22,754 nt of DNA, from positions 1 to 22,754 of the IMG/VR virus record IMGVR_UViG_3300031746_000184, one strand, 5' to 3'. Below are positions 1,817 through 18,690 of the stretch, piece after piece. Each line of letters starts with the position of its first letter. The stretch's first letter is position 1. The DNA comes from a virus. Under the pieces are notes generated by a model. It had not been told where the DNA came from. It did not search any database and saw nothing but the letters and a program-made list of their open reading frames with translations. Both the position numbers and the translations under genes were made by a program.

Positions 1817-2017
1817 ATGATTTTATGGCTTAATGCTTTGTGGTTGATGTTGTCGGATATGACAACCGTGATTTTTATTTTACTTGTGATTGTTTTGTGT
1901 GCTGTTGGTGTTCATATAAACTGGATAATTAAAATAAACAGGCTTGATATAAAAAAACAGATTATAGCTCATTGTAAAGATTGTCCTTTAAACAGAAGGA
2001 GAAAAAATTATGTCTGA
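1817..2017 (+). CDS. Small single-pass membrane protein, unknown function
   Basis: I choose ATG 1817 (66 residues) over an in-frame GTG at 1811, because AGGAG at 1807-1811 lies 5 bases before 1817 and would overlap the GTG. The protein is strongly hydrophobic from the start, with a clear membrane span around residues 16-36 (TVIFILLVIVLCAVGV). A basic tail follows, containing HCKDC and RRRK. The HxxxC/CxxC-like pair could bind a metal or form a disulphide, but this is not demonstrated. The gene overlaps the portal by 8 bases and sits between terminase and portal, where phages often carry unknown small genes. I do not recognise a family. Confidence 0.65.
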   Translation: MILWLNALWLMLSDMTTVIFILLVIVLCAVGVHINWIIKINRLDIKKQIIAHCKDCPLNRRRKNYV

Positions 2018-3362
2018 TTTAGAAAAGAGTGTTGCGAATAATGACGGCTGGGAAAATACTTTGAGTGGTATGGGACAGCCAGGAGTAGACCCCTCTCGAG
2101 GTACTTTTTTTCAACAGGGAGATTTATTAACCGAAATTGATATACAGGGTTTATACACCGATGAAGGGATTGCCGCTCGAATCGTAAACCTTATAGTTGA
2201 GGATATGCTTCGAGAGGGTTTTAAAATAGAATCTAAGAAACCCGAAGCCAACGTGTATATCCAAAAACGGTTTGAGGAGCTTAGATTAGTATACCACCTA
2301 AATAGACTCTTCTGTTGGGCACGTGCTTGCGGTGGAGCAATAATGGTAATTGGATTTAATGACGGTGAGACTGATACGTCGAGACCTCTTAATGAGAAGG
2401 CAATCAAAGGCATATCTTTCGTAAAGGTATTTGACCGGTTCAGGGTATCAAACATTACTTACGACCAAAATATTTTATCCAGTACATATTTACAACCGAT
2501 GTCGTACTCAATTTCACCGTATAATTCAGCGCCGTTTTCAATCCATGCATCCAGATGTATAGTTGTTGATGGTGTTGATTGCCTTGAATCTGTACGGGTT
2601 CAAAACCTCGGTTGGGGGTTAAGTGTTTACCAAAATATGTACGACGCTTTAATGCGGATAGGAAGAGTTTTCTGTTCAATCTCTACAATCGTGGACAGTT
2701 TTGTGCAGGACGTTATTGGAATTGAAGGACTTCACTCATTCATAGCTGCCGGGAAGGAGGAAATAATAAGAAAACGTTTACAGTTTATTGATGCAGGGAA
2801 GCACGTTTTAAATTCTATCCTCTTGGATAAGAATGAAACGTTTACTCGAATTATTGCTTCCGTTTCCGGGCTTTCAGACTTAATAGACCGCTTTGCATGT
2901 TACGTATCTGCCACGAATGGGATACCCCAAACACTATTGTTCGGCCGATCTCCAGCGGGATTAAATGCCACAGGGGAATCCGATATTCGTGGGTGGTACG
3001 ACAGGGTTGGGTCAAAGCAGGAATCAGATTTAAGTCCTGTCCTTGAACGGATTATTCATATATTGTTTATTTGTAAAGATGGATATAAAACTGAACCCGA
3101 AGATTGGTCTATTAAATTTAATCCATTATTACAAATGAGCTCCACCGAAGAGGCAACTTACAGGAAAACAATAGCGGAAACGGATAAGCTTTACATTGAC
3201 GGTCAGGTTGCCACTCCTGATGAAGTAGCCTTTACTCGCTTTACGGGCGGAAGGTACAGTGATGAGCCTTTAAAAATAGTTTTTGGTAATACTGCCGAAA
3301 GCGAATCCAAGACAACAGAAGAGCCTAAAGAGCCTAAAGAGCCTAAAGAAGAAGAGATTTAA
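2010..3362 (+). CDS. Portal protein (DUF1073/gp6-like)
   Basis: The 450-residue protein forms the dodecameric ring at the capsid vertex through which DNA passes. Its N-terminal part shows the DUF1073-like pattern (LYTDEGIAARIVNLIVEDMLREGF, about residues 48-71). The central and C-terminal parts carry the family hallmark LFGRSPAGLNATGESDIRGW (about 311-330), followed by the wing/stem helix with a conserved Gln. An AAGGAG site at 1996-2001 lies 8 bases before the ATG. The extreme C-terminus is a lysine/glutamate-rich tail made of three EPK units encoded by a 9-bp tandem repeat. The gene follows the terminase genes and a MuF-type gene starts on its stop codon, as expected for a portal. Confidence 0.92.
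   Translation: MSDLEKSVANNDGWENTLSGMGQPGVDPSRGTFFQQGDLLTEIDIQGLYTDEGIAARIVNLIVEDMLREGFKIESKKPEANVYIQKRFEELRLVYHLNRLFCWARACGGAIMVIGFNDGETDTSRPLNEKAIKGISFVKVFDRFRVSNITYDQNILSSTYLQPMSYSISPYNSAPFSIHASRCIVVDGVDCLESVRVQNLGWGLSVYQNMYDALMRIGRVFCSISTIVDSFVQDVIGIEGLHSFIAAGKEEIIRKRLQFIDAGKHVLNSILLDKNETFTRIIASVSGLSDLIDRFACYVSATNGIPQTLLFGRSPAGLNATGESDIRGWYDRVGSKQESDLSPVLERIIHILFICKDGYKTEPEDWSIKFNPLLQMSSTEEATYRKTIAETDKLYIDGQVATPDEVAFTRFTGGRYSDEPLKIVFGNTAESESKTTEEPKEPKEPKEEEI
3321..3347 (+). repeat. 9-bp tandem repeat, three copies, at the portal C-terminus
   Basis: GAGCCTAAA occurs three times back to back and encodes EPK-EPK-EPK in the charged portal tail. In-frame units can expand or contract without breaking the frame. 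It is probably a flexible tail, and copy number could vary between related phages. Confidence 0.85.
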
Positions 3363-5122
3363 TGGGTAAATTATTACCAAAACCTCCGAAGGTGCTCTAT
3401 CCCAGAGCTTTAGAACGACAGTTATTACTTATCTATCTTATGGTTGTAGAAGAAGTAATGGAAATACTCTCCAAAAAGGTTCTACGAGTATTTCATGATT
3501 CTTCTCGTGATAAGTCTATAAAAGGCGTTATTCAGAAATCCGAAGGAGCGCTGGAAGGAATTAAAGGAACAGCGAGGGCATGGGATAGAGCAGAATGGGA
3601 AAAGTTGAGAGGAAAGATTGCATTACCTCATACAGTGTACGCAGAACCCTTACAGGCTCGGCTTGATAAATTGGTGGAAGATAATATCGGTTTAATTAAA
3701 AGTCTTCCAGAACGACTTACATCCCGACTTGAAGAGAAGATTAAAGACATCCCAAAAGCAGGTGAGTCCAGAGCAACGGTTCAAAAACTATTAAAGGAAA
3801 CAGGCGATATTGGAAATCGGCGAGCCGAGTTAATTGCAAGAGACCAAATTGGAAAACTAAATGGTGACCTAACTCGGTTACGGCAAGAATCCCTTGGCGG
3901 GACAATGTATATATGGAGGACATCACAGGATGGCAGGGTTCGAGAGGCACATCAAGCTTTAGATGGAAAGATTTGTAAATGGGAAGACCCAACTGTCTAT
4001 GCTGATACAATAAAAGAGGCTATGGATGGAGAATGGAAAAGTAGAAATGAAATAGGAGCCTACGAGGGACACACTGGTGAGGACTACGAATGCCGATGCA
4101 CTGCAGAGATGGTAATGGATGACATATTAGGCATCGCTACTGGACAGGGTGGTGATGAAGAAGACAGTAGAGAGGGACGAGAAAATATAAAAATAAGCAG
4201 ACCGAAGGTACCAGCTTTACGGCTTATACCAGAAGACAGGAGTGGAGTAGTTTTCAGCCGATCTTTAAAAGGGTTATCTCCAGAGGAACAAGACAGGATT
4301 AGAGCCTTAAGAGCAGCACGTAAAGCTCGTAAAGAAGGAACTCCAGTTCAGCCTGTTGTTCGACCGGTACCAGTTGTTCGTACGGAACCCGTCGTTAGGG
4401 CGGAGGTACCTGCTCGTTATAAGGAAACTACCAGAGCCATAGAGTCATATAGTAGAGAAAATAAAATAAAGAGCTCAATTGATAATCTAAAGTATACAAC
4501 TGGCGAAGGATTCAACAAAAAAGTCTTTGTACCAGATTTGGATGCATTGGAACGAAGTCGAAAAGTAAAAGATAGTTTAAAAACTCATGTTAGTAGAATT
4601 TTTAGTGAGGTTCATGAAATTCCAAAATCGTCTGAAAACCTTGTATTAAATTTTCATAGATTTAAAGGAGCAACTTCGGGTACATATAGAAAAGGATTTA
4701 TGGAAGTAAAATTTACAAGACATTCAGAATTTGTACGACAAACATTTACTCATGAGTTTGGTCACCATTTACATTATACAATGGATCATTGGGGAAATAA
4801 TAATGTTATAGAGGCAATTAAAGAAACTGAATATTACAAGCTTCTTAAACAAAAAATGTATGAGCTTCAACCGATATTTACAGAGGCGACTGGACCAAAC
4901 AAGAGGTTATATGACTATTATGAGTACCTTACAAATGATAAAGAATTATTTGCTCGTTCTTATAGTCAGTATATCTGGGAAAAACTTGGAGATAGTAAAA
5001 TGTGTACGGCTGCAATGAGAACCGGCAGTGGATATTATATTAAAGAAGAAAGCTTTGCTCCAATACGAAAAGCGTTCGATGAGTACTTTAAAAATAAAGG
5101 ATTAAGTGTAACCAAAGGGTAA
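3362..5122 (+). CDS. MuF/SPP1 gp7-type head morphogenesis protein fused to a C-terminal HExxH zincin domain
   Basis: This 586-residue protein has two parts. Residues about 100-255 match the MuF/gp7 minor head protein: ARDQIGKLNGDLTRLRQE (about 158-175), AHQALDGK near 196-203, and a closing HTGEDYECRC with C244 and C246. MuF-family proteins bind the portal inside the prohead and may be ejected with DNA. After a PVVR-rich linker (about 328-350) comes an extra domain (about 351-586) with HEFGHH (H464, E465, H468) and ELFARSY (E528) 60 residues later, which fits two His ligands, a catalytic Glu and a downstream Glu ligand as in gluzincin-type metallopeptidases. This layout matches the described MuF-linked polymorphic toxins and polyvalent-protein peptidase domains. 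The C-terminal half looks more AT-rich than the MuF half. Whether it cuts a phage or a host protein is unknown. The start overlaps the portal stop by 1 base. Confidence 0.88.
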   Translation: MGKLLPKPPKVLYPRALERQLLLIYLMVVEEVMEILSKKVLRVFHDSSRDKSIKGVIQKSEGALEGIKGTARAWDRAEWEKLRGKIALPHTVYAEPLQARLDKLVEDNIGLIKSLPERLTSRLEEKIKDIPKAGESRATVQKLLKETGDIGNRRAELIARDQIGKLNGDLTRLRQESLGGTMYIWRTSQDGRVREAHQALDGKICKWEDPTVYADTIKEAMDGEWKSRNEIGAYEGHTGEDYECRCTAEMVMDDILGIATGQGGDEEDSREGRENIKISRPKVPALRLIPEDRSGVVFSRSLKGLSPEEQDRIRALRAARKARKEGTPVQPVVRPVPVVRTEPVVRAEVPARYKETTRAIESYSRENKIKSSIDNLKYTTGEGFNKKVFVPDLDALERSRKVKDSLKTHVSRIFSEVHEIPKSSENLVLNFHRFKGATSGTYRKGFMEVKFTRHSEFVRQTFTHEFGHHLHYTMDHWGNNNVIEAIKETEYYKLLKQKMYELQPIFTEATGPNKRLYDYYEYLTNDKELFARSYSQYIWEKLGDSKMCTAAMRTGSGYYIKEESFAPIRKAFDEYFKNKGLSVTKG

Positions 5123-5133
5123 AGGAAGGATAT

Positions 5134-5316
5134 ATGCTAAATAAGGTTGACAAGATTATGGAGTTTCTTGACAAACCTGAACAGGAATTGATTGACATGC
5201 CAAAAGACGTTTTTGTAAATGGATTAAAAGCTCTTGGTGTAGAAGGAGAAGCAGCGGAGGAGATTTACAAAACGTACCACGGAAAATTTGTTCAGTTAGA
5301 TGAAATTCCGATATAG
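5134..5316 (+). CDS. Small acidic protein, unknown; follows the MuF-zincin gene
   Basis: The protein has 60 residues, with a good site (AAAGGAAGGA at 5121-5130) just before ATG 5134 and only 11 bases after the preceding stop, so it is probably co-translated. It is acidic and predicted largely helical, with DMPKDVFVNGLKALGVEG in the middle; it has no membrane span and no signal peptide. I recognise no family. Its place directly behind a MuF protein with a peptidase domain suggests either an immunity or inhibitor partner or an unrelated small head gene; the sequence does not decide. A longer untranslated stretch follows, so it ends the early head block. Confidence 0.6.
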   Translation: MLNKVDKIMEFLDKPEQELIDMPKDVFVNGLKALGVEGEAAEEIYKTYHGKFVQLDEIPI

Positions 5317-5418: not shown

Positions 5419-6606
5419 ATGGCAATTAAGAAAGGGTTCATATTCAACGACACTGGCGAGGTCTTTCTATATAAGACTCGAGAAGGTTATTATAAAGGTT
5501 CCGCACGCGTAACGCGAACAGGTGTTCTGGTTTACAGACAGAAAGACGGAAAACCTCTACGGATATTAAGACATCCAGATGATGTTTTTAAACAAGATAG
5601 TTTACAGACGCTTAAGATGATTCCAGCTACAAATGACCATCCTATTGTACAAGACTCTTCTGTTCTTCTCCTTGATGCAAAGACCGCAAAAAAATTCAGT
5701 ATTGGATTTACTGGAGAGGATGTAAAAGCTGATGGTCAATATGTAACTGTTTCGTTATGTATTACTGATTCTGAAGGGATTGAAGCTATTAAGGAGGATG
5801 GAAAGGTAGAGCTTTCTTGTGGATATGAATCAACGCTTGAGGATGTTCCTGGAATTTACAATACCGTACCGTATGATGCAAGGCAAGTTGATATTGTTTA
5901 CAATCACGTTGCTGTCTTAAATAAAGGACGAGCAGGGTCTGATGTCAGATTAAAATTAATGGATGGAAGTTATTATGAATTAATAAAAGAAGGTGATGAC
6001 GAAAACCTTAAAAATCAAAATGTAAAGGAGAAGTCTATGTCACTACCTAAAGTTATGCTCGACTGTATCGAGTATGAAGCGGCTCCCGAGATAATCAATG
6101 CGCTGAAAAAAGGTGAAGTAAAGATTGCGGAGCTTGTTCAGGAAATAACAAAAACCAAAGCGGTTCTGGATTCTTCGAACATTGAACTCGCAAAACTTAA
6201 AGCGGTTGATGTCGAGAAGCTTGTGACCGACCGTGTTCAAGAACGTTCGGAGTTGATTTTAAAAGCGACGCCTTTCTTGGATTCGGCTGAAAAAGAGCAC
6301 GTATCTGAGTTGTCAAACGAGCAGATCCGGAAGCTTGTCGTAACGAAAAAGTTCCCGAAGTTGGAGCTGGAAGGTAAAGACCCGAACTATGTTCGAGCAC
6401 TTTGCGATGGTGCTTTCGTGGTCGTTGATGGTGCTGATAAAGGTGACACCGACGACGATGACGATGACGATGACGTGGAAGGCAAGACCGCTTCTGCTTC
6501 ACAAAGGAAAACCGTTTTTGGTGATTCAGCAAATCAGGAAACTGTCAGGACTGCTGAAATGGCTCGGAAAGAATACAACGACCGGTTACAGGGTAAAAAG
6601 AAATAA
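5419..6606 (+). CDS. Prohead maturation protease with C-terminal scaffold domain (DUF2213)
   Basis: The 395-residue protein begins with a DUF2213 domain (about residues 10-185), a phage family held to be the prohead protease. Conserved-looking elements are NDHPI (H74), VELSCGY (S133) and YNHVAVLNKGRAGSDVRL (H163). The order His, Ser, His resembles the assemblin Ser-His-His arrangement of herpesvirus proteases; I infer this triad from order and spacing and have not tested it. After residue 206 comes a charged, helical scaffold-like region with a run of aspartates (about 343-351) and a basic tail ending QGKKK. A second in-frame start at 6037 with its own ribosome site probably yields the scaffold alone. 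The gene lies just upstream of the cement and capsid genes, as protease/scaffold genes do. Confidence 0.85.
   Translation: MAIKKGFIFNDTGEVFLYKTREGYYKGSARVTRTGVLVYRQKDGKPLRILRHPDDVFKQDSLQTLKMIPATNDHPIVQDSSVLLLDAKTAKKFSIGFTGEDVKADGQYVTVSLCITDSEGIEAIKEDGKVELSCGYESTLEDVPGIYNTVPYDARQVDIVYNHVAVLNKGRAGSDVRLKLMDGSYYELIKEGDDENLKNQNVKEKSMSLPKVMLDCIEYEAAPEIINALKKGEVKIAELVQEITKTKAVLDSSNIELAKLKAVDVEKLVTDRVQERSELILKATPFLDSAEKEHVSELSNEQIRKLVVTKKFPKLELEGKDPNYVRALCDGAFVVVDGADKGDTDDDDDDDDVEGKTASASQRKTVFGDSANQETVRTAEMARKEYNDRLQGKKK
6037..6606 (+). CDS. Nested scaffold protein (internal in-frame start)
   Basis: ATG 6037 lies in the same frame as the protease gene (codon 207) and is preceded by AAAGGAG (6024-6030) with a 6-base gap, one of the better ribosome sites in the window. 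The predicted 189-residue product, beginning MSLPKVMLDC, covers exactly the non-protease part: helical charged segments (about 20-60), an Asp run and a lysine-rich end. Nested scaffolds inside a protease gene are established in lambda (C/Nu3) and herpesviruses (UL80/UL80.5). The domain junction, the ribosome site and the gene order all agree with this. Production of the separate protein is an inference; the ATG could be unused. Confidence 0.65.
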   Translation: MSLPKVMLDCIEYEAAPEIINALKKGEVKIAELVQEITKTKAVLDSSNIELAKLKAVDVEKLVTDRVQERSELILKATPFLDSAEKEHVSELSNEQIRKLVVTKKFPKLELEGKDPNYVRALCDGAFVVVDGADKGDTDDDDDDDDVEGKTASASQRKTVFGDSANQETVRTAEMARKEYNDRLQGKKK

Positions 6607-7471: not shown

Positions 7472-8428
7472 ATGCCAAAACGTTTTATTAACTTGGATGG
7501 ACAAGAGTCTATCTACTTCGCAAGGCAATTGGAATATGTGAAAACAAAAACGTATGACCAACCCTTTCCGGAGATGAAGGCACTCACTGGTCTACTCCCG
7601 GTTTCTATGGAAGCCGGTCCTGCTGCGGATTCGATTACATACCGCTCATTTACAGAACATGGAATTGCCAAGTTTCTAACAAACTATGCCGATGATTTAC
7701 CAAGAGTTGACGTTTCCGGAATCGAAGAGTCTGTCAAAGTCAGGTCAATAGGAGACTCTTTCGGTTACACGGTCCAGGATGTTCGTTATGCTGCAAAAGC
7801 AGGGATTCCATTACAGGCTTCCAAGGCGATTGCCGCAAGACGAGCAATTGAAATGCTGATTAACAAATCGGCATGGAAAGCCCGTGCTGCAGATACGACT
7901 TATCATGGGCTAACAGGATTGCTTTACAATCCGAACGTGACCTCCTACAAGGTTGCGGTTGAAGGTTCAGACTATGTATGGGCGGATAAATCTGCGGATG
8001 CAATCATAGCCGACATTAACACCCTTGCAAATACACCCATCAAGCTGTCAAAAGGGTATGAAATCCCGGATACATTCCTTTGCCCGATTACACAATTCAC
8101 ATTGATCTCCACAACTCCACGGTCTTCGTATTCGGATACAACGATTCTTGATTTTGTCAAGAAATCCAATCCGCATATTACAAGATGGGATTGGTTGGAA
8201 GAGTTGAAGGATGTAAATCCCGTTCCGAGCACTGGTGCTGCTGCAAATACTGACTGTGCTTTGGTTTACAAAAACAGTTCGGATAAACTTACCCTTGAAG
8301 TTCCCCAAGGGTTCGAGCAGTTTCCACCACAGGAGAAGGGATTAGAATTCATTGTTCCGTGTCATGCCAGATTTGCCAGTGTAATAATCTACTATCCAAT
8401 CTCGGTTGTGATTGCGGAAAATATATAA
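7472..8428 (+). CDS. Major capsid protein (DUF2184, HK97-fold type)
   Basis: The 318-residue protein matches the DUF2184 major capsid family of myoviruses: an N-terminal arm (residues about 1-45, with FARQLEYVKTKTYDQPFP), then TGLLPVSMEAGPAADSITYRSF, SFGYTVQDVRYAAKAGIPL and the spine-helix region with SKAIAARRAIE, followed by NKSAWKARAADTTYHGLTGLL. The C-terminal part carries DCALVYKNSSDKLTLEVPQGF and a closing strand. It forms the hexamers and pentamers of the shell. AGGAG lies at 7460-7464, 7 bases before ATG 7472. It sits directly before a very strong terminator, as expected for the most abundant virion protein. No separate N-terminal propeptide is obvious, although a DUF2213 protease is encoded upstream. 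Confidence 0.92.
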   Translation: MPKRFINLDGQESIYFARQLEYVKTKTYDQPFPEMKALTGLLPVSMEAGPAADSITYRSFTEHGIAKFLTNYADDLPRVDVSGIEESVKVRSIGDSFGYTVQDVRYAAKAGIPLQASKAIAARRAIEMLINKSAWKARAADTTYHGLTGLLYNPNVTSYKVAVEGSDYVWADKSADAIIADINTLANTPIKLSKGYEIPDTFLCPITQFTLISTTPRSSYSDTTILDFVKKSNPHITRWDWLEELKDVNPVPSTGAAANTDCALVYKNSSDKLTLEVPQGFEQFPPQEKGLEFIVPCHARFASVIIYYPISVVIAENI

Positions 8429-16974: not shown

Positions 16975-17680
16975 CTCTGGAGAGTTTATTAAAGTCATTG
17001 AAAATATTGTATTAAATATACTTAATGGTTCTATTCATACTTGCCTTCCAGGGAAAATAACTTCTTATGATTCTAAGACACGGAAGGCAACGGTTCAACC
17101 ATTAATAAAAAAGAAATATCTGGACGGAACAACTGCAAGTTATAAACCGGTTGAAGCCGTTCCAGTTTTATTTTTTGGTATTGGAAACAGTGGAATAAGG
17201 CTTCCTGAAAGCCAATACAAAGGTAAATCGGTTTTATTAGTTGTCTCGGAGCGATCGTTAGATACATGGCTTGTTGGTAATGGGAAAGAGGTTACTCCTC
17301 AGTCAAATAGAAAATTTGATATTTCTGATTGTATTGCTATTATATCTCTAAATACATTTTCCAATAAAGATATTGGAGGTAATAATTTAGAGGTTTATTA
17401 TAAAGACAGTGTAATTAGAATAAAACCAAATGGAGATATTGAGCTTGGATTAAATACTTTCAAAAAATTAATAAATGAAAGCTTTGCTGACTTGTTTGAC
17501 AATCATGTTCATACTGTTTCCGTTGCTGGGACTCCTTTGGCACAGACTGGAGTAACTTCGAGTCCTTCAAAACTAACGGGTATTCTTCCAGTGGCTGTTC
17601 CAGCGGTTCCGACAGTTCAACATTTATTTAATGATAGTATTATGGATAATCATAAGACAGAAAAAGTAAAGGCTGAATAA
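16967..17680 (+). CDS. Baseplate spike / central puncturing protein (gp138/gpV-like)
   Basis: The 237-residue protein begins with a helix, then an OB-fold-like domain: HTCLPGKITSYDSKTRKATVQPLI (residues about 23-46, key piece GKITSYDSKTRKATVQPL), VPVLFFGIGNSGIRLP and GKSVLLVVSERSLDTWLVG. A beta-stalk segment (NLEVYYKDSVIRIKPNGDI) follows, then NHVHTVSVAG near residue 177, an HxH motif of the kind that binds iron at the tip of gpV and gp138 spikes. Such trimeric spikes pierce the outer membrane. It sits between hub and receptor-region genes as expected. The C-terminal part with many Pro/Val/Thr residues after HVHT is longer than a minimal spike tip. Confidence 0.78.
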   Translation: MSNSGEFIKVIENIVLNILNGSIHTCLPGKITSYDSKTRKATVQPLIKKKYLDGTTASYKPVEAVPVLFFGIGNSGIRLPESQYKGKSVLLVVSERSLDTWLVGNGKEVTPQSNRKFDISDCIAIISLNTFSNKDIGGNNLEVYYKDSVIRIKPNGDIELGLNTFKKLINESFADLFDNHVHTVSVAGTPLAQTGVTSSPSKLTGILPVAVPAVPTVQHLFNDSIMDNHKTEKVKAE

Positions 17681-18411
17681 TGGATTACAAGTTTACTGAA
17701 AAATTGCCGGAAAACCGCTTGCTCTGGGATAAGTGCCTGATAAGTTCAGACGGAGTATATGCAATAGCTTTAGGAGAAAATCAATTATATATATCCAATA
17801 ATTCCGGGGATACATGGGTGAGGCCTGCGGATACTTTGATTTTTAATTTTATTGATTATATAGCAATAGATAAATCAGGTCAATATATGTTCGCCGCCAG
17901 TATTGGAATAACAGAAGAAAATGGAAAATTATATCTATCTGTTAACTATGGAGTAAATTGGACTGAGATAACAACCTGGCCAGGATACGAGGATGGAAAA
18001 ATAATAGAGGGAATAGGTATAAATAGTAATGGTACGGAAATTTTTATCTGTTATCATACTGACGTAGATTATCCAAACGGTGAAACCTTTTATTACAGTT
18101 CCGTAAATTTGGGAGTAGACTGGGTTGAACTTACGGTGCCTTCAGTAATCTCTGAGGGTAATGCCCAGGCGTGGTTTTTTGCGAACGAGGACTCAACGAT
18201 AATACATATCTATTATGAATATGGAGTTTTCCGTTCCGACAATCACGGTACGGATTGGACTGCCATATATGTTGCCTCCTCGATGGGGAAAGAGGGAATG
18301 TTTTCCGTCAGTGAGGACGGAGTGACAATGTTAATAAACGATTATAACATATTATATTTATCAGTAAACAGCGGTGCGGATTGGGTTGAACTTCCCGATT
18401 TGCTGTTATAG
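17680..18411 (+). CDS. Asp-box (BNR) beta-propeller protein, first part
   Basis: The 243-residue protein contains five Asp-box-like repeats of the type S-x-x-x-G-x-x-W: SNNSGDTW (39-46), SVNYGVNW (87-94), SVNLGVDW (141-148), SDNHGTDW (186-193) and SVNSGADW (228-235), spaced about 42-54 residues apart. Asp boxes mark blades of sialidase/sortilin-type propellers, often carbohydrate-binding, so a receptor-binding or tail-fibre role is plausible. It has no catalytic signature I can recognise. It starts on the spike stop (TAATG) and ends at TAG 18409-18411; a further Asp-box ORF follows in the same frame after two stops, so it is probably the first part of a larger propeller. Confidence 0.7.
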   Translation: MDYKFTEKLPENRLLWDKCLISSDGVYAIALGENQLYISNNSGDTWVRPADTLIFNFIDYIAIDKSGQYMFAASIGITEENGKLYLSVNYGVNWTEITTWPGYEDGKIIEGIGINSNGTEIFICYHTDVDYPNGETFYYSSVNLGVDWVELTVPSVISEGNAQAWFFANEDSTIIHIYYEYGVFRSDNHGTDWTAIYVASSMGKEGMFSVSEDGVTMLINDYNILYLSVNSGADWVELPDLLL

Positions 18412-18420
18412 GAATAATTT

Positions 18421-18690
18421 ATGCCAACAGAACCGAACGATGTTGTTACTTGTAAAGTGAACCTCGATGGGACAAAGTTATTTGTTTTGCGATGGTATAA
18501 ACTATTTGTATCTTTTGATAACGGAGAAACATGGACGGAAGTGACAAATCTACCAGAAGTTCCGGAACAAATAATAGTTCCTGGTAATCCTACGATTACT
18601 TGGAATCACTTATGGAAATCTATGGATGCCAGCGATGATGGTAAAAAATTAATAGCTGCAATAAAAGCTTTTGCGGTTATAGGGGATTAA
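18421..18690 (+). CDS. Asp-box propeller, second part (same frame, after two stop codons)
   Basis: The 89-residue product lies in the same frame as the upstream propeller gene, after TAG 18409 and TAA 18415. It has a sixth Asp box, SFDNGETW (31-38). Counting through the stops gives 50 residues from the fifth box, the same period as within the first gene. It has a modest ribosome site (TAGGA, 18409-18413) and its own ATG 18421, so it may be separately translated as a sixth blade. Whether this is a natural split or a decayed fusion cannot be decided here. KLIAAIKAFAVIGD closes it. Confidence 0.55.
   Translation: MPTEPNDVVTCKVNLDGTKLFVLRWYKLFVSFDNGETWTEVTNLPEVPEQIIVPGNPTITWNHLWKSMDASDDGKKLIAAIKAFAVIGD

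What the first reader, a model, noticed from the sequence alone, without database searches (positions are those of the whole stretch)
4412..5122. MuF head protein carries a zincin domain: possible virion-delivered effector
Seen: a MuF/gp7 domain, a PVVR-rich linker and about 235 further residues with HEFGHH (H464/E465/H468) and a Glu (E528) in an ELFARSY context, plus a more AT-rich coding segment. Known: MuF-linked polymorphic toxins and polyvalent metallopeptidase domains use this architecture, and anthrax lethal factor-like zincins share a HExxH plus later EFFA-type Glu. Inference: the domain may be ejected into the host with DNA and cleave a host or rival-phage target, or act inside the prohead.
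Basis: partly seen in the sequence, partly recalled or inferred. Interest (0 to 1): 0.75.

Follow-up and report, generated by a model that had tools for sequence, protein, structure and literature searches.

The report
Phage head-borne zinc protease with partner
A phage capsid protein (MuF) carries at its end a zinc protease domain folded like anthrax lethal factor and the Pro-Pro endopeptidases, and the next gene encodes a small acidic protein, conserved alongside this protease in many other phages, that is probably its dedicated inhibitor; the general MuF-toxin design is known, the conserved partner family appears not to be described.

Summary
ORF 3362-5122 (586 aa) is a MuF minor head protein directly after the portal gene, with a disordered linker and a C-terminal domain carrying HEFGH (464-468) and Glu528. 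All 33 homologous loci extracted after a search with the Glu-helix region alone have HExxH upstream (81/81 distinct after widening). A structure model gives a zincin core whose best solved counterparts are the anthrax lethal factor catalytic domain and Pro-Pro endopeptidases. On the same MuF lineage other phages carry ADP-ribosyltransferase, CdiA_C or different zincin tails: a MuF polymorphic-toxin architecture, which is published (Jamet 2017: 20% of MuF toxins carry a metallopeptidase). A small acidic ORF follows 66/76 zincin genes (29 with a 4-base ATGA overlap) but only 3/66 MuF genes without zincin (Fisher p 1.3e-25); its members form one homologous family without a Pfam or PHROGs match. 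It goes with the zincin, also where the zincin is fused to a portal protein. Best explanation: a virion-delivered protease with a cognate non-enzymatic inhibitor (immunity) protein. Enzyme activity, ejection, target and inhibition are untested.

The parts
3362..5122 (+). MuF-zincin gene, 586 aa, overlaps the last base of the portal stop (portal 2010-3362)
3755..4105 (+). MuF domain (PF04233), residues 132-248
   Evidence: E 6.6e-16; the genome search
4130..4534 (+). linker, mostly disordered, with PVVR repeats, residues about 257-391
   Evidence: pLDDT under 50 over 257-301 and 339-391; sequence
4538..5095 (+). zincin domain, residues 393-578: helix, three strands, HExxH helix, Glu helix
   Evidence: model; fold match; alignment
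4751..4765 (+). HEFGH, residues 464-468 (predicted zinc ligands H464, H468; general base E465)
   Evidence: invariant in 27 homologues; 81/81 loci
4943..4945 (+). E528, predicted third zinc ligand, in ELFARSY
   Evidence: invariant in 27 homologues
4922..5095 (+). stretch matching Pfam LPD1 (PF18796) below cut-off, residues 521-578: the Glu-helix half of the zincin
   Evidence: 23.8 bits on the domain alone, cut-off 27
5134..5316 (+). small acidic ORF (60 aa, pI 4.5), member of a family that follows this zincin; proposed cognate inhibitor/immunity protein

Best explanation
The gene encodes a MuF polymorphic toxin. The N-terminal half is a minor head protein that, as reported for SPP1 gp7, sits at the portal inside the head in one or two copies. 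The C-terminal domain is a zinc endopeptidase of the lethal factor/Pro-Pro endopeptidase fold, coordinated by H464, H468 and E528 with E465 as base. It is thought to leave the virion with the DNA and cleave a protein in the infected cell. The gene directly downstream makes a small, mostly helical, acidic protein that binds and silences this domain, protecting the producing cell and phage morphogenesis until delivery. Shown here: architecture, fold prediction, co-conserved active-site residues, exchangeable C-termini, conserved partner gene. Inferred: metal binding and activity, packaging, ejection, target, inhibition by the partner.
For: MuF domain and position after the portal. Active-site residues invariant in 27 homologues, HExxH in 81/81 loci, including 33/33 found with a query that lacked the HExxH region. 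Model: zincin core, block pLDDT mostly 80-93; best solved matches outside designed helical bundles are lethal factor (6zxj_H, Z 9.7, 160 residues, 3.9 A) and PPEP-3/PPEP-1 (Z 9.0/8.7). Same MuF lineage with other tails: ADPrib_exo_Tox twice, CdiA_C, other HExxH domains. Small acidic ORF after 66/76 zincin genes against 3/66 MuF genes without zincin, Fisher p 1.3e-25. Partner homology: 47/62 held-out members score above 99% of shuffles; three ORFs not used in training, two of them from bacterial genomes, hit at 1e-6 to 1e-9 while controls do not. The partner also follows zincins fused to a portal (L038) or without a MuF match (L047). The zincin is the fastest-diverging part: 49.5% identity to the nearest relative, against 73% for MuF and 81-92% for neighbouring genes. 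Precedent: Bxa, a MuF-ADP-ribosyltransferase, is neutralised by adjacent small proteins, one of which binds and blocks it (PMC11699363); 89.4% of MuF toxins against 25.5% of short MuFs have a small downstream ORF (PMC5576092).
Against: No activity, toxicity, packaging or ejection data. The partner is one recognisable family, whereas immunity proteins are usually unrelated between toxins; that would also suit a chaperone, a propeptide-like factor or an assembly factor. In one locus (L087) the partner appears fused to the next protein downstream (weak match, 10.5 bits). Ten of 76 zincin loci lack a partner by my criterion, and co-divergence of partner and zincin is weak (r 0.29). Whether the phage is temperate, as known MuF toxins are, cannot be seen from this 22.7 kb record.
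Confidence: 0.55

Rival explanations
1. The zincin is a processing enzyme that acts inside the prohead or virion (cleaving MuF itself, the scaffold or portal-associated proteins), and the small ORF is its propeptide-like regulator or chaperone.
For: The gene lies in the head operon next to the head maturation protease. P1 DdrB, with a C-terminal zincin, is processed before packaging (PMC5512222). In L087 the partner seems fused to the following gene. The partner is conserved across phages rather than polymorphic.
Against: Most phages with the same MuF lineage manage without any C-terminal domain (61 of 66 controls have short tails), and others carry ADP-ribosyltransferase or CdiA_C domains there, which points to effectors. 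A dedicated maturation protease is already present.
Confidence: 0.22
2. The zincin is a self-release peptidase: after entry it cuts the linker to free itself or another domain from the MuF anchor, as proposed for polyvalent proteins.
For: Proposed role of zincins in polyvalent proteins (PMC5512222); long disordered linker between MuF and zincin.
Against: In the window protein there is no further domain to release, and the zincin is the C-terminal domain in nearly all homologues (tail after the Glu motif about 50-70 residues).
Confidence: 0.15
3. The C-terminal domain is a non-catalytic relic or a DNA- or portal-binding extension that only resembles a zincin.
For: No experimental activity known; lethal factor itself contains a second, inactive copy of this fold (established knowledge; the model also matches it, 1jky_A 32-256).
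Against: All catalytic residues are invariant over 20-30% identity and in 81/81 loci.
Confidence: 0.05

Closest known systems
MuF polymorphic toxins (Jamet et al. 2017, PMC5576092; Zhang et al. 2012, PMC3482391)
   Same: MuF N-terminus after the portal gene, variable C-terminal toxin domain, small downstream ORF; 20% of 191 reported MuF toxins carry a metallopeptidase
   Different: Here the zincin clade and its homologous acidic partner are defined; the paper reports small ORFs in general, not this partner family
Bxa and its immunity protein Bsi (PMC11699363)
   Same: MuF fusion in a head operon with adjacent small proteins, one blocking the toxin by binding
   Different: ADP-ribosyltransferase, not a protease; its immunity proteins were not compared here
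Zincin-like MPTase domains of polyvalent proteins, and LPD1 (PF18796) (Iyer et al. 2017, PMC5512222)
   Same: Phage-delivered proteins with HExxH plus distal Glu; LPD1 matches the window's Glu-helix segment
   Different: The window protein is a short MuF fusion, has no Pfam MPTase-PolyVal match, and LPD1 is below cut-off
Anthrax lethal factor catalytic domain (ATLF) and Pro-Pro endopeptidases PPEP-1/PPEP-3
   Same: Predicted fold over residues 364-583, HExxH and a Glu on the next conserved helix
   Different: Sequence identity 12-15% in the structural alignment; no Pfam ATLF match in the window; attached to a phage head protein, not secreted

Membership tests
MuF polymorphic toxins | N-terminal MuF domain encoded next to the portal gene | tested here: met
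   PF04233 E 6.6e-16; portal phrog_146 directly upstream
MuF polymorphic toxins | Exchangeable C-terminal effector domains on a common MuF N-terminus | tested here: met
   Relatives found with the window's MuF carry ADPrib_exo_Tox, CdiA_C (E 4.4e-5, 24.0 bits, just under cut-off 26.6), other HExxH domains, or none
MuF polymorphic toxins | Small gene directly downstream (candidate immunity gene) | tested here: met
   ORF 5134-5316 and homologues in 66/76 zincin loci against 3/66 controls; protective function itself not testable here
MuF polymorphic toxins | Carried by a temperate phage | tested here: inconclusive
   Window holds only packaging, head and tail genes; zincin homologues occur in bacterial genome assemblies
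MuF polymorphic toxins | Toxicity in bacteria, neutralised by the partner | not testable with these tools
   needs expression experiments
Zincin metallopeptidases (HExxH...E) | HExxH plus distal Glu on a following helix, three-stranded sheet before the active-site helix | tested here: met
   distances between ligands could not be read, as model coordinates are not released
ATLF / PPEP fold group | Fold similarity to solved members | tested here: met
   lethal factor Z 9.7 (160 aligned, 3.9 A), PPEP-3 Z 9.0 (150, 3.3 A), above other zincin rows at about Z 7; plain Foldseek gave nothing at E<=0.001, so the match is of middling strength
ATLF (Pfam PF07737) | Sequence match to the family model | tested here: not met
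   no match of the window protein at E<=1; one of 27 homologues at E 0.0061
Pfam MPTase-PolyVal models | Sequence match to the family model | tested here: not met
   none listed for the window protein or 27 homologues
LPD1 (PF18796) | Score above the curated cut-off | tested here: inconclusive
   23.8 bits against 27 for the window domain; 10 of 27 homologues match at E<=0.01

The most novel reading that the evidence does not exclude
Phages carry a mobile two-gene cassette: a lethal-factor-fold protease anchored in the virion (through MuF, portal or other head proteins) and one conserved family of small acidic inhibitors that silence it through the active site until ejection. It would be a single protease-inhibitor lineage spread across unrelated phages, with Pfam 'LPD1' being part of the same protease.
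Probability: 0.4. Interest if true: 0.7.

Novelty: new variant of a known kind. Interest (0 to 1): 0.5.

Why it matters
MuF toxins with peptidase domains have been listed, but I found no report of a target or inhibitor for one. A conserved, co-encoded small partner makes the question testable at the bench: does it bind and block the protease, and what does the protease cut in a bacterium? It would link the fold of a well-known secreted toxin to a phage infection tool and give a new family of small protease inhibitors. The overlap of LPD1 with the Glu helix also suggests that a domain of unknown function is half of an enzyme.

Tried and rejected
Direct relatives by a single-protein search of viral contigs: none for the full protein, two for the domain; profile queries were needed. 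Genome search with the first domain alignment found nothing. phmmer of the domain against solved structures gave only the HExxH neighbourhood of serralysins (E 0.2), and the profile gave ADAMTS-5 (E 7e-4) over 54 positions around the HExxH: taken as motif-level matches, not family membership. Plain Foldseek of the full model against PDB gave no match at E<=0.001; designed helical bundles matching residues 8-180 were ignored as helix matches. The partner's fold model (four short helices, pLDDT 76) has no solved counterpart above noise; weak UBA-like hits (UBA_HYPK, RuvA_C, E 0.07) are only a lead. In L031 a second zincin gene follows with an N-terminal stretch resembling the partner, but the profile does not confirm it. 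Partner searches with the window's copy alone found nothing. The co-divergence test gave a weak signal. The genome search around the window was not possible as it is a virus record.

Full report
What is there. The window is a complete IMG/VR record of 22,754 bases, a run of packaging, head and tail genes on the + strand: terminase 531-1808, portal 2010-3362, the gene in question 3362-5122, a small ORF 5134-5316, a head maturation protease 5419-6606, and the major head protein 7472-8428. The 586-residue product has a MuF domain at 132-248 and matches the head families phrog_324 and phrog_4529. HEFGH is at 464-468 and Glu528 in KELFARSY. The AT-rich claim holds: 32.3% GC for residues 351-586 against 43.5% before.

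Is the zincin real. A close relative (IMGVR 3300009082_000083, also in 3300027792_000059) keeps the head operon; its terminase is 83%, portal 81%, MuF N-terminus 73%, maturation protease 92% but zincin only 49.5% identical. A query restricted to the Glu-helix region (A3, no HExxH) found 30 viral and 4 genome loci, and all 33 extracted proteins have HExxH upstream. A wider scan brings this to 81 distinct loci, 81 with HExxH 48-119 residues before the Glu motif. In 27 aligned proteins H418, H464, E465, G467, H468, E528, R532, Y534 and Q536 are invariant and Y522 nearly so. The AlphaFold2 model from 27 homologues is poor overall (mean pLDDT 62) but mostly confident in the domain: helix 393-417, strands 428-432, 440-443, 448-452, HExxH helix 458-473, Glu helix 526-542, block pLDDT mostly 80-93. 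VIA-align ranks lethal factor (Z 9.7, 160 residues, 3.9 A) and PPEP-3 and PPEP-1 (Z 9.0 and 8.7) above other zincins such as LTA4H at about 7. The viral structure library returns minor capsid proteins.

LPD1. The only Pfam match in the domain is LPD1, 23.8 bits against a cut-off of 27, over residues 521-578, that is, over the Glu helix. I searched 388 genomes of the phylum of the Akkermansia locus for LPD1: all eight proteins found have HExxH 56-197 residues upstream and a Glu-containing E..ARAF-like motif inside LPD1. One of the eight (L222) is itself a member of this zincin family. LPD1 therefore looks like the Glu half of a zincin rather than a separate domain. Whether its authors already treat it so is not stated in the text I read.

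Polymorphic C-termini. Using the window's MuF region I fetched 80 loci. Of 66 usable MuF genes without HExxH, 61 end soon after the MuF domain. The long ones, and three further HExxH cases, carry ADP-ribosyltransferase exoenzyme domains (L133, L175), CdiA_C (L209, just under cut-off), an intein-like insert (L189), an unknown tail (L155), a divergent member of the same zincin (L132, HEISH and ELWARSYSQ) and two other HExxH domains (L138, L190). This is the polymorphic-toxin pattern described by Jamet et al. 2017 (PMC5576092), who report that 13% of MuF proteins carry toxin domains, 20% of those metallopeptidases, and that these toxins are confined to temperate phages.

The partner gene. Directly after the zincin gene the window has a 60-residue ORF, pI 4.5, which the relative keeps. 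Looking after each of the 76 zincin genes with enough sequence, 66 have an ORF of 38-115 aa with pI under 6 starting within -90 to +80 bases, 29 of them at exactly -3 (ATGA overlap). By the same criterion only 3 of 66 MuF genes without zincin do; Fisher p 1.3e-25. These ORFs are homologous: in five-fold cross-validation 47 of 62 held-out members exceed the 99th percentile of shuffled sequences, the window's at 13.8 bits against a best shuffle of 7.4. A final profile hits three ORFs not used in training (L099, L214, L226; the last two from bacterial genomes) at 1e-6 to 1e-9, and no control ORF. The shared pattern is a glycine-led turn followed by a helix with a conserved Ala, then G-E-x-x-G-D-V and an acidic tail; the window's copy lacks the GDV. 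No Pfam or PHROGs family matches with significance (best E 0.015). The partner follows the zincin, not MuF: it is present when the zincin is fused to a portal protein (L038) or lies in a short protein with no MuF match (L047, whose ORF scores 11.6 bits). The model of the window's copy is four short helices with a loose tail. My acidity and distance limits were set after seeing the first 30 loci, so the 66/76 figure is partly fitted; the control used the same limits, and bacterial-genome loci seen later repeat the pattern.

Mechanism. MuF proteins of the SPP1 gp7 kind are bound to the portal inside the head (PMC5576092). A C-terminal protease there would be carried in a few copies and could leave with the DNA. 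That relatives swap it for known toxin domains, that most close relatives lack it altogether, and that it is matched by a dedicated small acidic protein, together favour an injected effector with a cognate inhibitor over a head-processing enzyme. The best experimental parallel is Bxa, a MuF-ADP-ribosyltransferase blocked by the adjacent small protein Bsi (PMC11699363). The target is unknown; the PPEP-like fold suggests a protein substrate cleaved at defined, possibly proline-containing, sites, which is only a lead.

Verdict. The general kind is published. What goes beyond is the partner family, its tie to this zincin clade, and the overlap of LPD1 with the Glu half of the zincin.

Noticed in passing
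L215-L222 (genome-search loci): Pfam LPD1 (PF18796, unknown function) in eight proteins of one phylum always has HExxH 56-197 residues upstream and a Glu..ARAF motif inside it: probably the Glu-ligand half of a zincin.
   Followed up: partly
L189 2533-4416: MuF gene interrupted by an intein-like insertion (Intein_splicing E 4.1e-6, below cut-off) right at the MuF cysteine motif.
   Followed up: no
L133, L138, L190, directly downstream of the MuF genes: A different small ORF type with conserved Cys and 'CEAFPxGIP..H..P..GDNGIQFE' follows other MuF genes, in L133 fused to a longer protein; possibly a second partner family.
   Followed up: no
L123 13-3462: 1150-aa fusion of portal protein, inorganic pyrophosphatase and this zincin.
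   Followed up: no
L031 5216-6301: A second zincin gene follows the first; its N-terminus looks like the partner but the profile does not confirm it.
   Followed up: partly
L087 3429-4928: Partner-like N-terminus (10.5 bits) fused in frame to the next 500-aa protein downstream.
   Followed up: partly
window 17680-18690: Two neighbouring ORFs with repeated SxDxGxTW-like motifs (17680-18411 and 18421-18690) are in the same frame, separated by a stop codon: perhaps one beta-propeller gene with an in-frame stop.
   Followed up: no
Akkermansia phages Chantilly and Chambord (ON453895.1, ON453894.1): Phages with a named cultured host whose 'head morphogenesis' gene carries the same zincin, placed before the terminase; usable as experimental relatives.
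   Followed up: partly
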